Shown here: piece after piece, positions 1 through 50,362 of the stretch
How positions within the stretch are numbered: the stretch's first letter is position 1
Layout of the letters: every line of letters starts with the position of its first letter
From: Cyanobacteria bacterium SW_9_44_58
GTDB lineage: Bacteria; Cyanobacteriota; Cyanobacteriia; Cyanobacteriales; Rubidibacteraceae
Length of the DNA stretch: 61,517 nt
Assembly (NCBI GenBank): GCA_003021905.1
Contig: PXPI01000016.1
Location: forward strand, 1 to 61,517
Reading direction: 5' to 3'
Translations under genes and position numbers: made by a program
The notes under the pieces: model-generated
What the model saw: only the letters and a program-made list of their open reading frames with translations
Databases searched by the model: none
What the model was told of the DNA's origin: nothing

Positions 1-96
1 AAGGTTAGTGTTCGTTGATGAGGAGCGGTGTGATGGGAAACTATCACGCACCGTTCTGGAGCCGAGTCAGTAGGGCAACCTACTGGCTTAGGTAAC
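1..96 (+). mobile_element. 3' end of a group II intron (domains V and VI)
   Basis: Positions 23-56 fold as a canonical 34-nt domain V: AGC triad at 24-26, a GAAA tetraloop at 37-40, and a two-base bulge (CG) at domain positions 25-26, with all other bases paired, including G-U. Positions 62-92 then form a domain VI hairpin with a GCAA loop and an unpaired A at 90, the expected branch point. The element should end a few bases later; AC at 95-96 fits the usual AY ending. The intron body and any reverse transcriptase lie left of the window. It runs antisense to pheA, so it could not be spliced from the pheA mRNA. Confidence 0.88.
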
Positions 97-5800: not shown

Positions 5801-6280
5801 ATGTCTGAACGTTTTTCCTGGATTATTCCCAATCGTCTTGCGGTGGGCTCTTTCCCAACACAAAGCTATGAAATTTCTTACTTAAGCCGCGCCGGAATTA
5901 CTTCTGTGTTATGTCTAACGGAACCTCAGGAAATTCCAGTTCCTCAACAAGTTTATAATCGATTTGTGTGGCGCAATATCGCGATTCCCGATGGGGCAAC
6001 TGGAGGCGTCCCCAAAGTTGAACAGTTTCAGCAAGCCTGCGCTATTTTATCCCGTTGGCATCACAACGGTCATGTTGTCTATGTTCACTGCTTAGCTGGC
6101 GTCGGACGCGCTCCTTCCATTTGTATTGCTTATCTAGCCCAAATGGAAGGGATTTCCTTACAAGAGGCCCTCGGCAAAGTTCAGGAAAGACATCCTCCCA
6201 CCTATCCCGATTCCGCACAGATTGAAGTGTTGCAAGCGTTTTTAGCCCTCTCGCAAGAGGAGAAGGCAAATGCGAAATGA
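5801..6280 (+). CDS. Dual-specificity / tyrosine-type protein phosphatase
   Basis: A 159-residue single-domain phosphatase. The P-loop reads HCLAGVGRAPS with catalytic Cys97 and Arg103 (HCxxGxxR). The general acid is probably the Asp of IPDGATGG near residue 64. Small cyanobacterial enzymes of this type resemble laforin- and DSP4-like phosphatases; the substrate (phosphoprotein or phosphoglucan) cannot be told from sequence. It sits 53 bp after holB, with a possible -10 TATACT at about 5780, so it may have its own promoter. It converges on gcvT with 7 bp between stops, too little for a separate terminator. Confidence 0.85.
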   Translation: MSERFSWIIPNRLAVGSFPTQSYEISYLSRAGITSVLCLTEPQEIPVPQQVYNRFVWRNIAIPDGATGGVPKVEQFQQACAILSRWHHNGHVVYVHCLAGVGRAPSICIAYLAQMEGISLQEALGKVQERHPPTYPDSAQIEVLQAFLALSQEEKANAK

Positions 6281-6287
6281 TCAACCG

Positions 6288-7439
6288 TTATTTTTTCGGT
6301 GGGGGATTATTCGTCCGATAGAAGGGTTTTTTCACCACTTCTGCCGGATAGGTGTTGCGGCGAATTTGCACTTCTAGGGATTGTCCCACTTGCGATAAGG
6401 ATTTGGGAACATACCCCAAAGCAATGGCTTTACCGAGAGTTGGGGATTGGGTGCCGCTGGTGACAACACCAACTTCCTCTCCTTGGGATAAGATGGGATA
6501 ATCATGGCGAGCAATGCCTCGTCCTTGCATTTCTAAGCCGACTAAGCGGCGTTTGACGCCGTTTGCTTTTTGTTGGGCCAACACCTCTCGCCCCATAAAA
6601 TCTCCTTTGCTATCCAAGTGGACTAACCAACTTAACCCCGCTTCCATGGGGGTAGTATTTTCATCAATATCCTGTCCATATAACGATAACGCCGCTTCCA
6701 GCCGCAGGGTATTTCTTGCCCCTAACCCGCAAGGGGTAACCCCTTGTGCGAGTAAAGTTTCCCATAATTTTCGTCCCGCCGTCACCGGAAGCATCATTTC
6801 CACACCATCTTCGCCGGTATAGCCGGTACGGGAAAGGAAAGCGCGTTCCCCAAAAAGAGAGACGTCTGTGTGACCGAAGGCTTTAAGAGCGGCAATATTG
6901 TCTTCTATAAAGGGCGTTAGCATGGAAATAGCTTTTGGCCCTTGTACCGCCATTAAAATCTGGTCTTGGGAAACATCTTCCAGTTGAACTGACGTTTGGG
7001 ACAACTGTTCCAGCAGCCAATTCTTATCTTTCTGCGTGGTGGCGGCATTAACAATGGCAACCGCGCGATTATTGCCCTGATAATAAAAAATAAAATCATC
7101 AATGATGCCGCCTTGGCGGTTCAGCAGCACCGTGTATTGCGATTGTCCCGCATCAAGGCGAGATAAGTCCGAGGGCACCAAAAATTGCAATTGTTCGGTT
7201 AAATTGTCACCGCTAAGTAAGAATTTCCCCATGTGAGAAATATCAAACATCCCCACACTGTCACGCACGGCTGCGTGTTCCGGTTTCAAGCCGGAAAATT
7301 GGACTGGCATTTCCCAACCCGCAAACTCGGTCATGCGAGCTCCTTGTTGGATGATTAAATCATAAAGGGGAGTTCGTCTCGTTTGATTCGATGTCGCTGT
7401 CACGATAAATGTTTTAACTTCGCTTAATCTACAGTTCAT
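6288..7439 (-). CDS. gcvT: Glycine cleavage system aminomethyltransferase (T protein)
   Basis: Transfers the aminomethyl carbon from the H protein to tetrahydrofolate, releasing ammonia, as part of glycine cleavage and photorespiration. Signature segments are TEFAGWEMPVQF near residue 37, FDISHMGKFLLSG near residue 65, SRTGYTGEDGVEM near residue 205 and the GLGARNTLRLEAAL folate region near residue 237. The C-terminal barrel ends with VKKPFY. The first 15 residues of the longest frame are not family-like; a GTG about 15 codons in may be the true start. The other glycine cleavage genes are not nearby. Confidence 0.95.
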   Translation of the reverse strand: MNCRLSEVKTFIVTATSNQTRRTPLYDLIIQQGARMTEFAGWEMPVQFSGLKPEHAAVRDSVGMFDISHMGKFLLSGDNLTEQLQFLVPSDLSRLDAGQSQYTVLLNRQGGIIDDFIFYYQGNNRAVAIVNAATTQKDKNWLLEQLSQTSVQLEDVSQDQILMAVQGPKAISMLTPFIEDNIAALKAFGHTDVSLFGERAFLSRTGYTGEDGVEMMLPVTAGRKLWETLLAQGVTPCGLGARNTLRLEAALSLYGQDIDENTTPMEAGLSWLVHLDSKGDFMGREVLAQQKANGVKRRLVGLEMQGRGIARHDYPILSQGEEVGVVTSGTQSPTLGKAIALGYVPKSLSQVGQSLEVQIRRNTYPAEVVKKPFYRTNNPPPKK

Positions 7440-7513
7440 TCAGTTTACCGTGATTGCCCCCCCATTCTCATCTTCACTGCAACCAATTCTAGAGAAAAAA
7501 TTACTAACCTCCC

Positions 7514-9268
7514 TTACATCCGTTCTAAAACCTCAATTCCCAGTAGGGATAATCCCAATTTCAGGGTGCGTGCGGTTAAATCCGCTAACATTAAGCGAGA
7601 CGTTCGTTTCGGTTCTTGGGCTTGTAAAACCGGACAGCGATCGTAGAATTGATTAAAGGTCTGACTCAGTTCAAAGAGATATTGACAGAGGCGATTCGGC
7701 AACAACTCTTGTTCCACTTCTTTGATGACATCACTGAGTTGCAGGATATGTTTGGCCAGGACAAATTCACTGTTATCTTCCAGGGAAATGGTTTGATTGC
7801 CTAAGGTGTTTAAATCAATCCCTCCTTTGCGACTAATCCCTTGCACGCGCACATAAGCATAGAGGAGATAGGGGGCGGTGTTCCCTTGCAGGGTGAGCAT
7901 TTTGTCGTAGCTAAAGACATAGTTGCTGGTGCGGTTGCGACTGAGATCCGCGTATTTTACGGCACTAATCCCCACGACTCGGGCGTTTTTTTGGATAAAT
8001 TTTTCACTTTCGCTGCGCCCTTCTTCCGCCAAGCGCCGTTCTAAATCTTGGCGCGATCGCGCGATCGCTTCATCTAACAAATCTTGCAGGCGCACTGTAT
8101 CCCCAGACCGGGTTTTCAGTTTCTTCCCATCTTCTCCCTGGACTAAACCAAAGGGAACATGCACCAATTCCACCTCCTCGGGAACCCAACCGGCGCGTTC
8201 GGCTACCTGAAAAACTTGGGCAAAATGATTCGCTTGTCCGGCATCGGTAACATAAATAATCCGTTGTGCCCCATCTTGCCGGATGCGATAGCGAATGGCA
8301 GCTAAATCGGTTGTGGCGTAGTTATAGCCCCCATCGCTTTTCTGCACAATTAAGGGCAGGGGTTCCCCGGACTTATTGGTAAAGCCTTCCAAAAAGACAC
8401 ATTTTGCCCCTTGATCTTCTTCCACTAAGCCTTTTTCTTCCAACTCCTGTACCGTTTCCCTGAGAAAGGGGTTATAAAAGGATTCACCGCGTTCGGTCAA
8501 CTCAACGCCCAGCAAATCATAAATCACCTGGAACTCCCGCCGCGATTGTTCACAAAGCAATTTCCAAGCGCGAACGCTATCTTCTGCCCCTTTTTGCAGT
8601 TTCACCACTTCTTCGCGGGCGTTTTTTTGGAACTGTTCATCCTCATCAAAGCGTTTTTTCGCCTCACGGTACAACGTCACCAAATCTCCCAAGGCTAAAG
8701 CGTCTGCTTTGGTTAACGCCTCGGGGGAAGCTTCTCGCAAGTAGGCAATCAGCATCCCAAACTGGGTTCCCCAGTCGCCAACATGGTTGAGACGGAACAC
8801 ATCATGGCCGCGAAATTCTAAAATCCGGGCAAGACAATCCCCAATAATGGTGGAACGCAGATGCCCCACGTGCATTTCTTTGGCAATATTGGGACTGGAA
8901 AAATCAACAATCACCCGTTGCGGGGTTTCCGCTTTTTCTACCGCCAGTTGGCTATCTTGGGCAATGGTTTGCAGTTGCGATTCTAAATAACTGGCTTTGA
9001 GTCTAAGATTAATAAATCCCGGTCCGGCAATTTCTGGGGGATGCGAGATGCTTTCAATCTCAAGATGATCCACAATCTGTTGCGCGGTATCTCTGGGCTT
9101 TTGTTTGAGTTCTTTGGCAAGAGAAAGGGCAATATTGGATTGATAGTCCCCAAACTCCGGTTTAGCGGCAGGTACAACCAAGGGATCGGTATCGGCATAG
9201 TCATCGCCGAAGGCCTTAACTAAAGCTTGGGAAACGTGTTGTCGCAGTTGTTCCAGCAGTGAGTACAT
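7514..9268 (-). CDS. argS: Arginyl-tRNA synthetase
   Basis: Charges tRNA-Arg. The 584 residues have the class Ia plan: an N-terminal Add1 domain with [10 protein letters not shown], the HIGH-type motif HVGH at 133-136, a Rossmann catalytic core, a KMSKS-equivalent region reading KKLKTRSGD near residue 390 (ArgRS typically lacks the second Lys), and a C-terminal DALR anticodon-binding domain with [10 protein letters not shown] and a terminal [14 protein letters not shown]. Two adjacent HIP1 octamers lie inside the gene. It precedes gcvT on the same strand by 74 bp. No clear Shine-Dalgarno is present. Confidence 0.97.
8053..8068. repeat. Two adjacent HIP1 octamers (GCGATCGC twice)
   Basis: Two copies of the cyanobacterial HIP1 palindrome abut without spacer inside argS, forming one longer palindromic block. 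The same arrangement occurs at 58347-58362 inside the beta-lactamase-like gene. Confidence 0.9.
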
Positions 9269-45941: not shown

Positions 45942-46538
45942 CTAATGATAGTTGTTGCCACTCCCAGGGGAAATCGATTCAGGAGAAACTTTCAGTTTTT
46001 CAATAACGTTTTGGGCTTGTTGGTAAGTGTTCAAATTCCCTTGTTCTTTGGCAAGACTCGCTCCTTTTTCAAAGTCCGCGATCGCGCTTTCAATATTGCC
46101 TAACTCTGCTTTAACATAACCGCGATTAAAATATAATAACGCATATTCGGGATCAATTTTTATTGCTTTATTATAGTCAGCAAGTGCCTTGTCATACTGC
46201 CCTAATCGAAAATACATTGTTCCCCGAAAATTGTAGGCATCAACATTATTTGGATCTAGTTCAATTACATGAGTAAAATCATCAATAGCTTTATCATACT
46301 TTTGTAAATGATTATAAGCTAACCCCCGCTGTAAATAACGTTCAGGATCATTGGGATCTTCCTTAATCGCTTCCTTAATGGCTTTCATCACAGCAGGATT
46401 AACATGAGCCATAAAAAAATTTTGTTTTGAATCAAAGAATTCTTGCTTTGATGATCTAGATATATAATCAAATGCAAAACCAGGCTGAATCGATAATATA
46501 ATTAATCCCAAACTTACTAAAAAACTTCTTATAATCAT
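45942..46538 (-). CDS. Secreted TPR-repeat protein
   Basis: 198 residues with a signal peptide (SFLVSLGLIILSIQPGFAF) and four consecutive TPR-like repeats from about residue 60: DPERYLQRGLAYNHLQKYDKA, then DAYNFRGTMYFRLGQYDKAL, ALLYFNRGYVKAELGNIESA, and a shorter last one. It is a scaffold for protein interaction in the periplasm or lumen; the partner is unknown. It lies in the decay zone but is intact. An AT-rich 290-bp gap with TTAATGTTAATGTTAACG repeats precedes it. Confidence 0.82.
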   Translation of the reverse strand: MIIRSFLVSLGLIILSIQPGFAFDYISRSSKQEFFDSKQNFFMAHVNPAVMKAIKEAIKEDPNDPERYLQRGLAYNHLQKYDKAIDDFTHVIELDPNNVDAYNFRGTMYFRLGQYDKALADYNKAIKIDPEYALLYFNRGYVKAELGNIESAIADFEKGASLAKEQGNLNTYQQAQNVIEKLKVSPESISPGSGNNYH

Positions 46539-46828
46539 AAGTTATTTTTTCCAAAATTAATGTTAATGTTAACGTTAAATTCTGTGACTGAAACGAAAAA
46601 GAAAATTAATTCTGATGGATTTCGTTAGGTTCTGATGTGTATTTATCATTACAGATAATAGCTGTCGAATTATTTCTCTCTTATAGGAAGTTTTTAGAAA
46701 ACTCAAATAACAGCATAGGGGCAACACCTATACTTCCATTTTAGGCATTCTCCCGTTAATAAATCAGACTTATGTCAAAAAATCAGTCAGTTGCTGATTA
46801 ATGATACTTCTTTTCAAATCAATCAAGG

Positions 46829-48298
46829 TTAATCATTATGCGCATGTTCGAATTTATAAACATAAAATAACCTTGAGAATTTTTGCAAAAAATATCCCCC
46901 TAAACCTAGCAAAGTACCGCTTCCCATTAATAGCCAAAAACTCCAATGAGGTGCAATTAACCAAATTTCGTCGCTATTTAAAGCGCTTTGGGCACTCAAT
47001 CTGGCATCAAGCATAATCCCTAAAAACAAGCAAATTGCTGCCGAAATATAGCTAAAATTAGTCACCCTTTTAATATTGTTTAAAGCTCGTTGACAAACCT
47101 GACAATCTTTAGTGTGTGTTGTCCAAACATCAAATAGCTTATTTTTGTCCGCTTCTGCTGGCGGCAACTTATCATACCCAAACCAAGGAATTTTCCCTCC
47201 GGCTCGTTTCAAAAGCCACTGACGAAATGCGATTACCATTTTATCTTGCGGGTTTGGCGTATAAAATAAACTCATATAATTGTTTGGAGATCTCTGAGCC
47301 AATAATTTTTCTTGGTGATGGAGAAATACTAAATCTTGATGCAGAAATAATGACGCTAAAATATGAGTTAACCAGGTTGGCAGAGATGCTCCAAAGATCG
47401 AAAAACCCTTTGGCAATTTTCCTTGGTTGTTTTTAACAAATACTTGACAAGCAATATGGCGACACTACCCAGGATGGGTAGGAATAGCATATAATGCCAA
47501 AATTAATTGACTGCCATCTTGATAAGTAGAAGCAATTCTCATGTAACAAGGAGGCTGAAAATCATGTACCGTTTCTTGTAAATTTTCTGCTACCGGTGTT
47601 ACGGAAAAAGAAAATCCTTCTTGAGTTGAAGGCTTTCTAATCGGTATCATGTCATAGTATTTATCATCGCTATAACGATTCCCTTGTAAACCGTGATGAG
47701 AAAAGGGAACATGAGCCGGATCTGACACATTTTCCATAAAAAAGTCCCAACCATAAGGCAAATCCCTAATTGTCCAAGGAGATTTGACAACATTATCGGA
47801 ATTTTCTTCCAATTCCGGCGTTAATCGCGGTTTTTGCAATTGACTTTCTTCCAATGCTTGTGAACCGGATTCTCCCCAAACCCAGATTAAACCTTGCGCA
47901 ACTTGAGTGGGATAAACTGTTAGGCAAGCTTGAAAATGAGCGCAGTTACTTGCTTCTGTTTCTGCATCTGAAGACTGGGGGATTTTGACGCATTTTCCTT
48001 CTCCACTGAATCGCCAACCATGATAAGCACAGGAAAGGGTTCCATCGGCTTCGATTCTCCCTTCCGATAGCGGTACGCCACGATGTGGACAAACATTTTC
48101 CCAACAATGCCAATTGCTGTCATCGTCTTGCCATAGAACTAATTCCTTGCCCAATAATTGAATGGAATGGGGCTTGCTAGAGTCGATAAAATTGGCAACA
48201 GCAACTGGATACCATTGTTTGGTCCATTGGAATTGTTCTACTGGTTCTGATTGTTGTAGGTGATTTACCGTTTGTTGATCCTTAAGTTCTGAAGTCAT
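46829..48298 (-). pseudogene. PaO/Tic55-like Rieske oxygenase with one in-frame amber codon
   Basis: The full frame would encode about 489 residues. An N-terminal Rieske centre (CPHRG near residue 70 and CAYHGW about 20 residues on), a mononuclear iron site (NVSDPAHVPFSHHGL), the C-terminal CxxC of the PaO family (TKDCQVCQRAL), and two membrane helices at the end are all intact. A single TAG at 47467-47465 sits in PTHPG-stop-CRHIACQVFVKNN. The frame is open on both sides, and no other damage is visible. Relatives carry Trp or another residue there, and TGG to TAG is one change. This looks recent or tolerated by readthrough. Enzymes of this family oxidise chlorophyll breakdown products or other cyclic substrates. 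Confidence 0.88.
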
Positions 48299-48366
48299 GA
48301 TTCAATTTTGTTATTTACGATATCTCATGAACTCATTCATGAATACATGTATGTTTGAATCTCACT

Positions 48367-49695
48367 TTAACGAATTTTTTCAAACTTCACTTTCAAACCA
48401 TCACGGGGACGAGGAACTGGTACTGTTGTTAATTCCGTATCTTGATTAGGAACTAATTCCCATTGATAATTACGGACTAAATGAGCCGCAAATAGTTTCA
48501 TTTCCAAACGAGCAAATTCTTTCCCAAGACATTCTCGCATACCGCCGCCAAAGGGAATATAATTATAAGTTTTGCCTGGATTATAGGGTTGTTCAGGATT
48601 AAACCGTTCTGGATTATAGGTTTGCGGTTTGGGATAAACTGTTTCTTCTTGATGCGTTTGATTAATTTGACAGAGAACATTCCACCCTTTGGGAATGAAA
48701 TAACCATTAAATTCACAATCTTCTGTTACTTCCCGAAAAACACCGCCAACAGGAGGAATAAGACGCAATACTTCTTGCAATATTTGTTCCAAATAAGTCA
48801 TTTGTTTCAAGCTTTCCAAAGTAACTGGTTCTGAGGTAGAAAATTGTTCTTGTTCCTCTCTCACTTTCTGTAAAATTTCTGGGTGTTGTGCCATTAGCAT
48901 ACAAAAAGAGGTTAACCCAGAGGTTAATGTTTCATGTCCCGCAAACAGTAATAGTAGGATTTGGTCTTTCAGTTCATCAACACTTAATTTATTGCCCTCT
49001 TCATCTTCGGCTTTCATTAAAGTTCCCAAGGCATCATTGCCAGGGTCGCTTCTATTTTGACGTTCTTTAATAATTTGATCGAGTTGGTTCAGGATTTTGT
49101 TTCGACAATTTAAAGCACGACCAAACTTTGTCCAAGGAAGTGAAATGGGAATTGAAAATAATCCATTTGACCAAGTTTCAAATAAGTGACGGAGTTGGGT
49201 TTGTGAACCATTTTCTAACCCAACAAATAATTGAAAAGCAATATCAAACGTATAGTTCCTAAGTTGAGGATACCAACTCAAATATTGTTGTTTTTCCCAA
49301 CTCGTGAGAAACTTTTGAGTGATCTCTTCCATGGTTTCGATATAACTGCTTAAAGCACGAGGCTTAAAAGCTTGCGCAAGAAGTTTCCGGCGTTGTTTAT
49401 GTTCATGTCCGGTTTGAATGGTGAGAGATAAAGGCCCTAGCAAAATACGAATGCTGCGTGGCCAACTTGAAGTAAAATATTTGTTTTCATTAGTCAAAAT
49501 AAATTGCGTTGCTTTTTCTCCTTTAAAGACAATTGTCGGCTTACCAAAGAGACGCGTTTTAAAGACGGAACCGTATTTTTCATTCCGTTTATTGACAAAA
49601 TCTTTATCCCGCAAAAATGCTATCGTTTCGCCAATAAAAGGTAAACCAAAGTTTCCTGGCGGAAGAGATTGTGTCGTTGCTGTTTGAGTTGTCAT
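48367..49695 (-). CDS. Cytochrome P450, CYP120-like
   Basis: 442 residues, intact. I-helix LLLLFAGHETLTSG near residue 247, K-helix ExxR (EVLR) near residue 311, and the heme-binding FGGGMRECLG with its cysteine near residue 390. The N-terminus LPPGNFGLPFIGETIAFL is proline-rich like CYP26/CYP120 proteins, soluble without a membrane helix. CYP120A1 of Synechocystis hydroxylates retinoids; a retinoid or apocarotenoid substrate is inferred here. It follows, on the same strand, nothing but a short gap (68 bp) to the Rieske gene, so they may form an operon; no ferredoxin gene is adjacent. Confidence 0.88.
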   Translation of the reverse strand: MTTQTATTQSLPPGNFGLPFIGETIAFLRDKDFVNKRNEKYGSVFKTRLFGKPTIVFKGEKATQFILTNENKYFTSSWPRSIRILLGPLSLTIQTGHEHKQRRKLLAQAFKPRALSSYIETMEEITQKFLTSWEKQQYLSWYPQLRNYTFDIAFQLFVGLENGSQTQLRHLFETWSNGLFSIPISLPWTKFGRALNCRNKILNQLDQIIKERQNRSDPGNDALGTLMKAEDEEGNKLSVDELKDQILLLLFAGHETLTSGLTSFCMLMAQHPEILQKVREEQEQFSTSEPVTLESLKQMTYLEQILQEVLRLIPPVGGVFREVTEDCEFNGYFIPKGWNVLCQINQTHQEETVYPKPQTYNPERFNPEQPYNPGKTYNYIPFGGGMRECLGKEFARLEMKLFAAHLVRNYQWELVPNQDTELTTVPVPRPRDGLKVKFEKIR

Positions 49696-49718: not shown

Positions 49719-50362
49719 TTGCTTTCTATTAAACAGGGTAACGAATCAATCCCGCTGACTATGTTGTTCGTAACGAATGCCCCAACGATGCATTTCATTA
49801 ATAATGGTTGGATTCAACCGGGTGCAGGTTTTCCCACTCATGGCCATCAAGATATGGAAATTATAACTTATGTTCTAGAAGGGACATTAAAACATCAAGA
49901 TAATCTTGGCAATGGCTCAATTATTTATCCAGGAGATGTTCAGAAAATGAGTGCTGGAACTGGAATTTTACATAGTGAGTTTAATCCTTCAAAAACGGAT
50001 CCCGTTCATTTATTACAAATCTGGATTATTCCTGATAAAAAAGGTATCAAACCTACTTATGAACAGCGTAATTTTAGCATTGATCAAAAACTGGGAAAAT
50101 TAAATTTAATTGCATCGCAGAGGGGGATTGCGTTCCTATCCAACAAGATGTAAATTGTTATTCAAGTATGTTAACAAGTGGGTATATTGTAACTTATAAT
50201 ATTGTTCGGCAACGCCACGTTTGGCTACAAGTTGTTAAAGGGGCGGTAACTCTGAATGATACGCCGTTAAGTACCAGTGACGCTGCTGGAGTGACTGGGG
50301 AAAATGCACTAATTATTCAAGCCACAGAGGATGCAGAGATTTTATTGTTCGATTTAGCTTGA
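49719..50362 (+). pseudogene. Pirin-family gene, N-terminally damaged and frameshifted
   Basis: The metal-binding cupin core is clear: [20 protein letters not shown] (the His residues and Glu of pirin), then [18 protein letters not shown]. Upstream of INNGWIQPG the usual HGWLDSYHTFSF region is not readable. After LNLIASQ the frame breaks at a five-G run near 50118-50122; the next frame continues [25 protein letters not shown] and AEILLFDLA, a normal pirin C-terminus. The protein is therefore broken in at least two places. Pirins are cupin-type regulators or quercetinases. Confidence 0.8.

What the first reader, a model, noticed from the sequence alone, without database searches (positions are those of the whole stretch)
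46829..48298. Single amber codon in an otherwise intact PaO-like Rieske oxygenase
TAG at 47465-47467 interrupts a frame that is open on both sides, with Rieske, mononuclear iron, CxxC and membrane segments all preserved. That is unusual for a decaying gene and fits a very recent mutation or readthrough. The N-terminal piece has both metal sites but lacks the CxxC and the membrane anchor, so it could also be a soluble variant.
Basis: seen in the sequence. Interest (0 to 1): 0.6.

Follow-up and report, generated by a model that had tools for sequence, protein, structure and literature searches.

The report
Freshly broken PaO-like Rieske oxygenase gene
In this cyanobacterial genome a membrane-anchored iron oxygenase gene, related to plant chlorophyll-breakdown enzymes, was cut short by a single-letter change that turned a tryptophan codon into a stop; it looks like ordinary, recent gene loss rather than a special decoding trick.

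Summary
On the minus strand, window 48298-46829 encodes a 489-codon PaO-like Rieske oxygenase interrupted only by TAG at codon 278 (47467-47465). In 73 of 74 distinct intact cyanobacterial homologues this codon is TGG (Trp), so one G-to-A change explains it. Conserved sites downstream of the stop have not decayed more than those upstream (2/55 versus 5/90 changed), so the mutation is young. No suppressor tRNA was found among 36 tRNA genes, RF1 is present, and 8 of 41 long ORFs in the window end in TAG. No relative has a stop at this codon, but several carry stops or frameshifts at other codons, so the family is lost repeatedly. A neighbouring single-copy pirin gene is also broken, and three genus mates lack the oxygenase beside the same P450. 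Best reading: a recently inactivated accessory gene. A sequencing error at the base cannot be excluded without reads. Ordinary; low interest.

The parts
46829..48298 (-). PaO-like Rieske oxygenase gene (489 codons plus stop), interrupted by one in-frame TAG
   Evidence: full-length homologues
47465..47467 (-). TAG, codon 278; TGG in 73 of 74 intact relatives, CAG in one
47468..48298 (-). N-terminal open part (277 aa): Rieske cluster site and the two iron-binding His, no third iron ligand
46832..47464 (-). C-terminal open part (211 codons): rest of PaO domain, invariant D322 (aligned with iron ligand Asp280 of SxtT), CxxC, two long C-terminal helices
47474..47476 (-). codon 275 CAT (His); Arg in 73 of 74 relatives, mostly CGT; a second G-to-A type change 9 bases from the stop
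48367..49695 (-). cytochrome P450, intact, upstream neighbour in the same direction; conserved in several genus mates
45942..46538 (-). TPR protein, downstream neighbour; directly follows the P450 in genus mate G002, with no oxygenase between
49719..50317 (+). pirin pseudogene: start region lost and a frameshift near 50117-50129

Best explanation
A recently inactivated accessory gene. A full-length, membrane-anchored PaO-like Rieske non-heme iron oxygenase in this cyanobacterial lineage suffered one nonsense mutation (TGG to TAG, Trp278). Translation now ends inside the catalytic domain, giving a 277-residue fragment with the Rieske cluster site and two iron-binding His but without the Asp ligand, the rest of the fold, the CxxC and the anchor. 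The fragment is expected to be inactive. Shown: the codon, its identity in relatives, the motifs, the absence of extra decay, the broken neighbour. Inferred: that the base is real and fixed, that the protein is dead, and that loss was tolerated because the enzyme is dispensable here.
For: Codon 278 is TGG in 73/74 relatives. No other stop or frameshift in 489 codons. Departures at sites conserved in at least 97% of relatives: 5/90 before and 2/55 after the stop; the total of 7 lies near what the protein's general divergence predicts, 4.6 with residual SD 2.2. Simulated neutral decay of 2.7% would leave an 11% chance of no further stop and add about 8.5 conserved-site changes, so inactivation is younger than a few percent of neutral divergence. 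The stop precedes invariant D322, aligned with iron ligand Asp280 of SxtT (PMC7293229). The gene is sporadic: 65 of 391 genomes of the order, and no close homologue in the 8 other genomes of its family. Other members carry independent stops (Q108, W141, W372) or frameshifts; the 36%-identical paralogue shows 0 stops in 114 matches against 4 in 68 here (Fisher p 0.018). The adjacent pirin is a pseudogene with two lesions.
Against: No reads and no second isolate were available, so a base-call or assembly error remains possible. Absence of decay fits a functional gene read wrongly, or read through, as well as a very young pseudogene. Transcription was not measured. The P450 next door is intact, so the whole neighbourhood is not decaying.
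Confidence: 0.82

Rival explanations
1. Sequencing or assembly error, or a minor population variant called into the consensus; the real gene is intact.
For: The change is one base and the rest of the gene is intact with no excess decay; no reads are available.
Against: Single wrong substitutions are uncommon in a consensus; the adjacent pirin carries unrelated lesions, so gene breakage in this region is not limited to one doubtful base.
Confidence: 0.09
2. Programmed or suppressed readthrough: the TAG is translated some of the time, giving a short soluble and a long anchored form.
For: The frame downstream is undecayed.
Against: No CTA anticodon among 36 tRNA genes found; RF1 present; 8 of 41 long ORFs in the window end in TAG; no relative has a stop at this codon, and the stops of other relatives lie elsewhere. 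The tRNA set found lacks a few expected members (for example Asn-GTT, Ile-GAT, Ala-TGC), so it is not complete.
Confidence: 0.04
3. The 277-residue fragment is a functional soluble variant.
For: It keeps the Rieske cluster site and the two His of the iron site.
Against: It lacks the invariant Asp ligand and the last part of the catalytic sheet. If only the short form were selected, the part after the stop should decay faster; it has not.
Confidence: 0.03
4. Split enzyme: the C-terminal piece is made from an internal start and the two halves assemble.
For: A TTG start follows an AAGGA-like stretch at about 47416; PMC9615114 reports a CAO homologue made of two chains in Micromonas.
Against: The TTG codes for Leu in the GKLP stretch, whose Lys and Pro columns are conserved in the family, so start and AAGGA are explained by coding; the first 16 codons after the stop would be lost, including part of a strand of the sheet.
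Confidence: 0.02

Closest known systems
Cyanobacterial PaO-like Rieske oxygenases (PF00355 + PF08417), e.g. in Nostoc, Anabaena, Planktothrix, Moorena
   Same: Full-length homology over 489 residues at 55-64% identity; Rieske, iron-binding, CxxC and C-terminal helices
   Different: This copy has an in-frame TAG at codon 278 and R275H
Plant PAO / TIC55 / PTC52 / CAO family
   Same: Rieske CxHx17Cx2H, Nx2Dx2Hx4H, C-terminal CxxC (motifs of PTC52 as given in PMC6530659)
   Different: Substrate unknown; prokaryotic; truncated here
SxtT / GxtA (PDB 6wn3, 6wnc)
   Same: Closest solved folds (TM-score by target 0.67-0.76); Asp280 aligns with D322
   Different: No PaO C-terminal extension, different substrate, about 20-24% identity
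Single-nonsense pseudogenes in bacterial genomes
   Same: One premature stop, intact remainder, sporadic accessory gene, decayed neighbour
   Different: Nothing notable

Membership tests
PaO-like Rieske oxygenase | Rieske [2Fe-2S] motif CxH-x16/17-CxxH | tested here: met
   C70, H72, C90, H93 invariant; PF00355 9e-26
PaO-like Rieske oxygenase | Mononuclear iron site: N-x2-D-x2-H-x4-H plus a C-terminal Asp | tested here: met
   N190, D193, H196, H201 and D322 present in the full frame; in the translated 277-residue product D322 is missing
PaO-like Rieske oxygenase | PF08417 domain | tested here: met
   78 bits over the full frame against cut-off 27; the N-terminal piece alone scores 24.2, below the cut-off
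PaO-like Rieske oxygenase | C-terminal CxxC and membrane helices | tested here: met
   C399/C402 invariant, long helices 400-439 and 452-478 in the model; membrane insertion itself not tested; all lie after the stop
Pheophorbide a oxygenase (activity) | Oxygenation of pheophorbide a | not testable with these tools
   No substrate data
Readthrough / recoded gene | Suppressor tRNA, or a stop conserved at the same codon in relatives | tested here: not met
   No CTA anticodon in 36 tRNA genes; no stop at this codon in 74 relatives
Pseudogene | Premature stop removing essential residues, with an intact ancestral form in relatives | tested here: met

The most novel reading that the evidence does not exclude
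The TAG is translated at a useful rate by an undetected amber suppressor or readthrough mechanism, making a short and a full-length oxygenase from one gene.
Probability: 0.04. Interest if true: 0.5.

Novelty: new member of a known kind. Interest (0 to 1): 0.13.

Why it matters
It matters little on its own: one more recent gene loss. Seen across relatives, this PaO-like oxygenase is carried by about one in six genomes of the order and is broken at different places in several of them, while a paralogue is never seen with a stop. That suggests a conditionally useful enzyme that is lost readily, which could help to find its unknown role.

Tried and rejected
A conserved P450-oxygenase operon was sought: the P450 is not beside the gene in other cyanobacteria apart from weak 27-28% hits. 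Foreign origin was examined: the tree puts the gene on a long branch (0.62, median 0.084) in an unresolved group next to other long branches, so origin cannot be read; GC at third positions is low (0.30) but about that of the neighbouring P450 and TPR genes (0.27), so it does not mark the gene as foreign. Conserved readthrough was rejected because no stop recurs at the same codon. The soluble variant was rejected because D322 is missing. dN/dS was not attempted: the nearest relatives are only about 64% identical, so synonymous sites are expected to be saturated.

Full report
What is there. On the minus strand, 48298-46829 is one gene of 489 codons with a single in-frame stop, TAG at 47467-47465, codon 278. 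Pfam finds a Rieske domain and a PaO domain; the PaO domain is divided by the stop, profile 1-35 before and 37-86 after. So the two frames are halves of one gene.

What the stop replaced. The order-wide search and the public genome contigs gave many full-length cyanobacterial homologues. In 74 distinct intact ones, codon 278 is TGG in 73 and CAG in one. One G-to-A change makes TAG. Codon 275, nine bases upstream, is CAT (His) where 73 of 74 have Arg, mostly CGT, a second change of the same type.

How old. At sites conserved in at least 97% of relatives the protein departs at 5 of 90 before the stop and 2 of 55 after it. Seven departures in all compare with 4.6 predicted from its general divergence, residual SD 2.2. 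There is no second stop or frameshift. Simulation shows that 2.7% neutral substitution would leave an 11% chance of no new stop and add about 8.5 conserved-site changes. The lesion is therefore young, or the gene is not really broken.

Is it decoded? ARAGORN on the tRNA loci found by covariance search shows no CTA anticodon among 36 genes; a few expected tRNAs are absent from the set, so it is not complete. RF1 is present. Eight of 41 long ORFs in the window end in TAG. No relative has a stop at codon 278. Other relatives have stops at Q108 (L052), W141 (L067) and W372 (L065), frameshifts with stops (L126, L127), or other breaks (L075, L083, L087, L092). Some of these are metagenome or raw long-read assemblies, so individual cases may be errors. 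As a control, the 36%-identical paralogue of the same genome had no stop in 114 matches over the same 391 genomes, against 4 in 68 for this family (Fisher p 0.018).

Could the short product work? The family has an invariant Asp at 322. A profile search aligns it with Asp280 of SxtT (a weak second segment, but in register with the same D-x-x-x-L-H-x-Q pattern), which PMC7293229 names with His164 and His169 as the iron ligands. The AlphaFold model (mean pLDDT 81.8) has a strand at 279-288 and a helix at 308-336 that carries D322; the model is weaker at 300-350. Foldseek ranks SxtT/GxtA first. The 277-residue product therefore lacks the third iron ligand and part of the catalytic domain.

Setting. 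The gene lies between a P450 and a TPR gene in the same direction. In genus mate G002 the P450 is followed directly by the TPR gene with no oxygenase between; G001 and G005 also have the P450 without the oxygenase. None of the other genomes of the genus or family has a close homologue. The pirin gene divergent from the P450 has lost its start region and carries a frameshift, and is the only copy in the genome; in G002 the P450 lacks its N-terminal part and pirin is a remnant. The window's genome, 2.94 Mb, is smaller than those of four of its five genus mates (3.5-4.8 Mb), the fifth being an incomplete assembly. Loss of accessory genes at this locus has thus happened more than once. Whether the oxygenase was gained in this lineage or lost from the others cannot be told.

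Verdict. Readthrough and a soluble variant are unlikely. The one open technical question is whether reads support the base.

Noticed in passing
49719-50317 (+): Pirin pseudogene: about 38 N-terminal codons and roughly 500 bases upstream missing relative to genus mate G001, plus a frameshift near 50117-50129; no other copy in the genome.
   Followed up: yes
L149 (G002), about 6000-7980: In this genus mate the P450 has lost its N-terminal part, pirin is a remnant, and the P450 is followed at once by the TPR gene.
   Followed up: partly
L052, L065, L067, L126, L127, L075, L083, L087, L092: Independent stops, frameshifts or interruptions in the same oxygenase family in other cyanobacteria, each at a different place.
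   Followed up: partly
45942-49695: TPR, oxygenase and P450 genes have markedly lower GC at third positions (0.27-0.32) than most genes of the window (about 0.42).
   Followed up: no
21-96 (+): Rfam match to a group II intron (RF00029) at the window's left edge.
   Followed up: no
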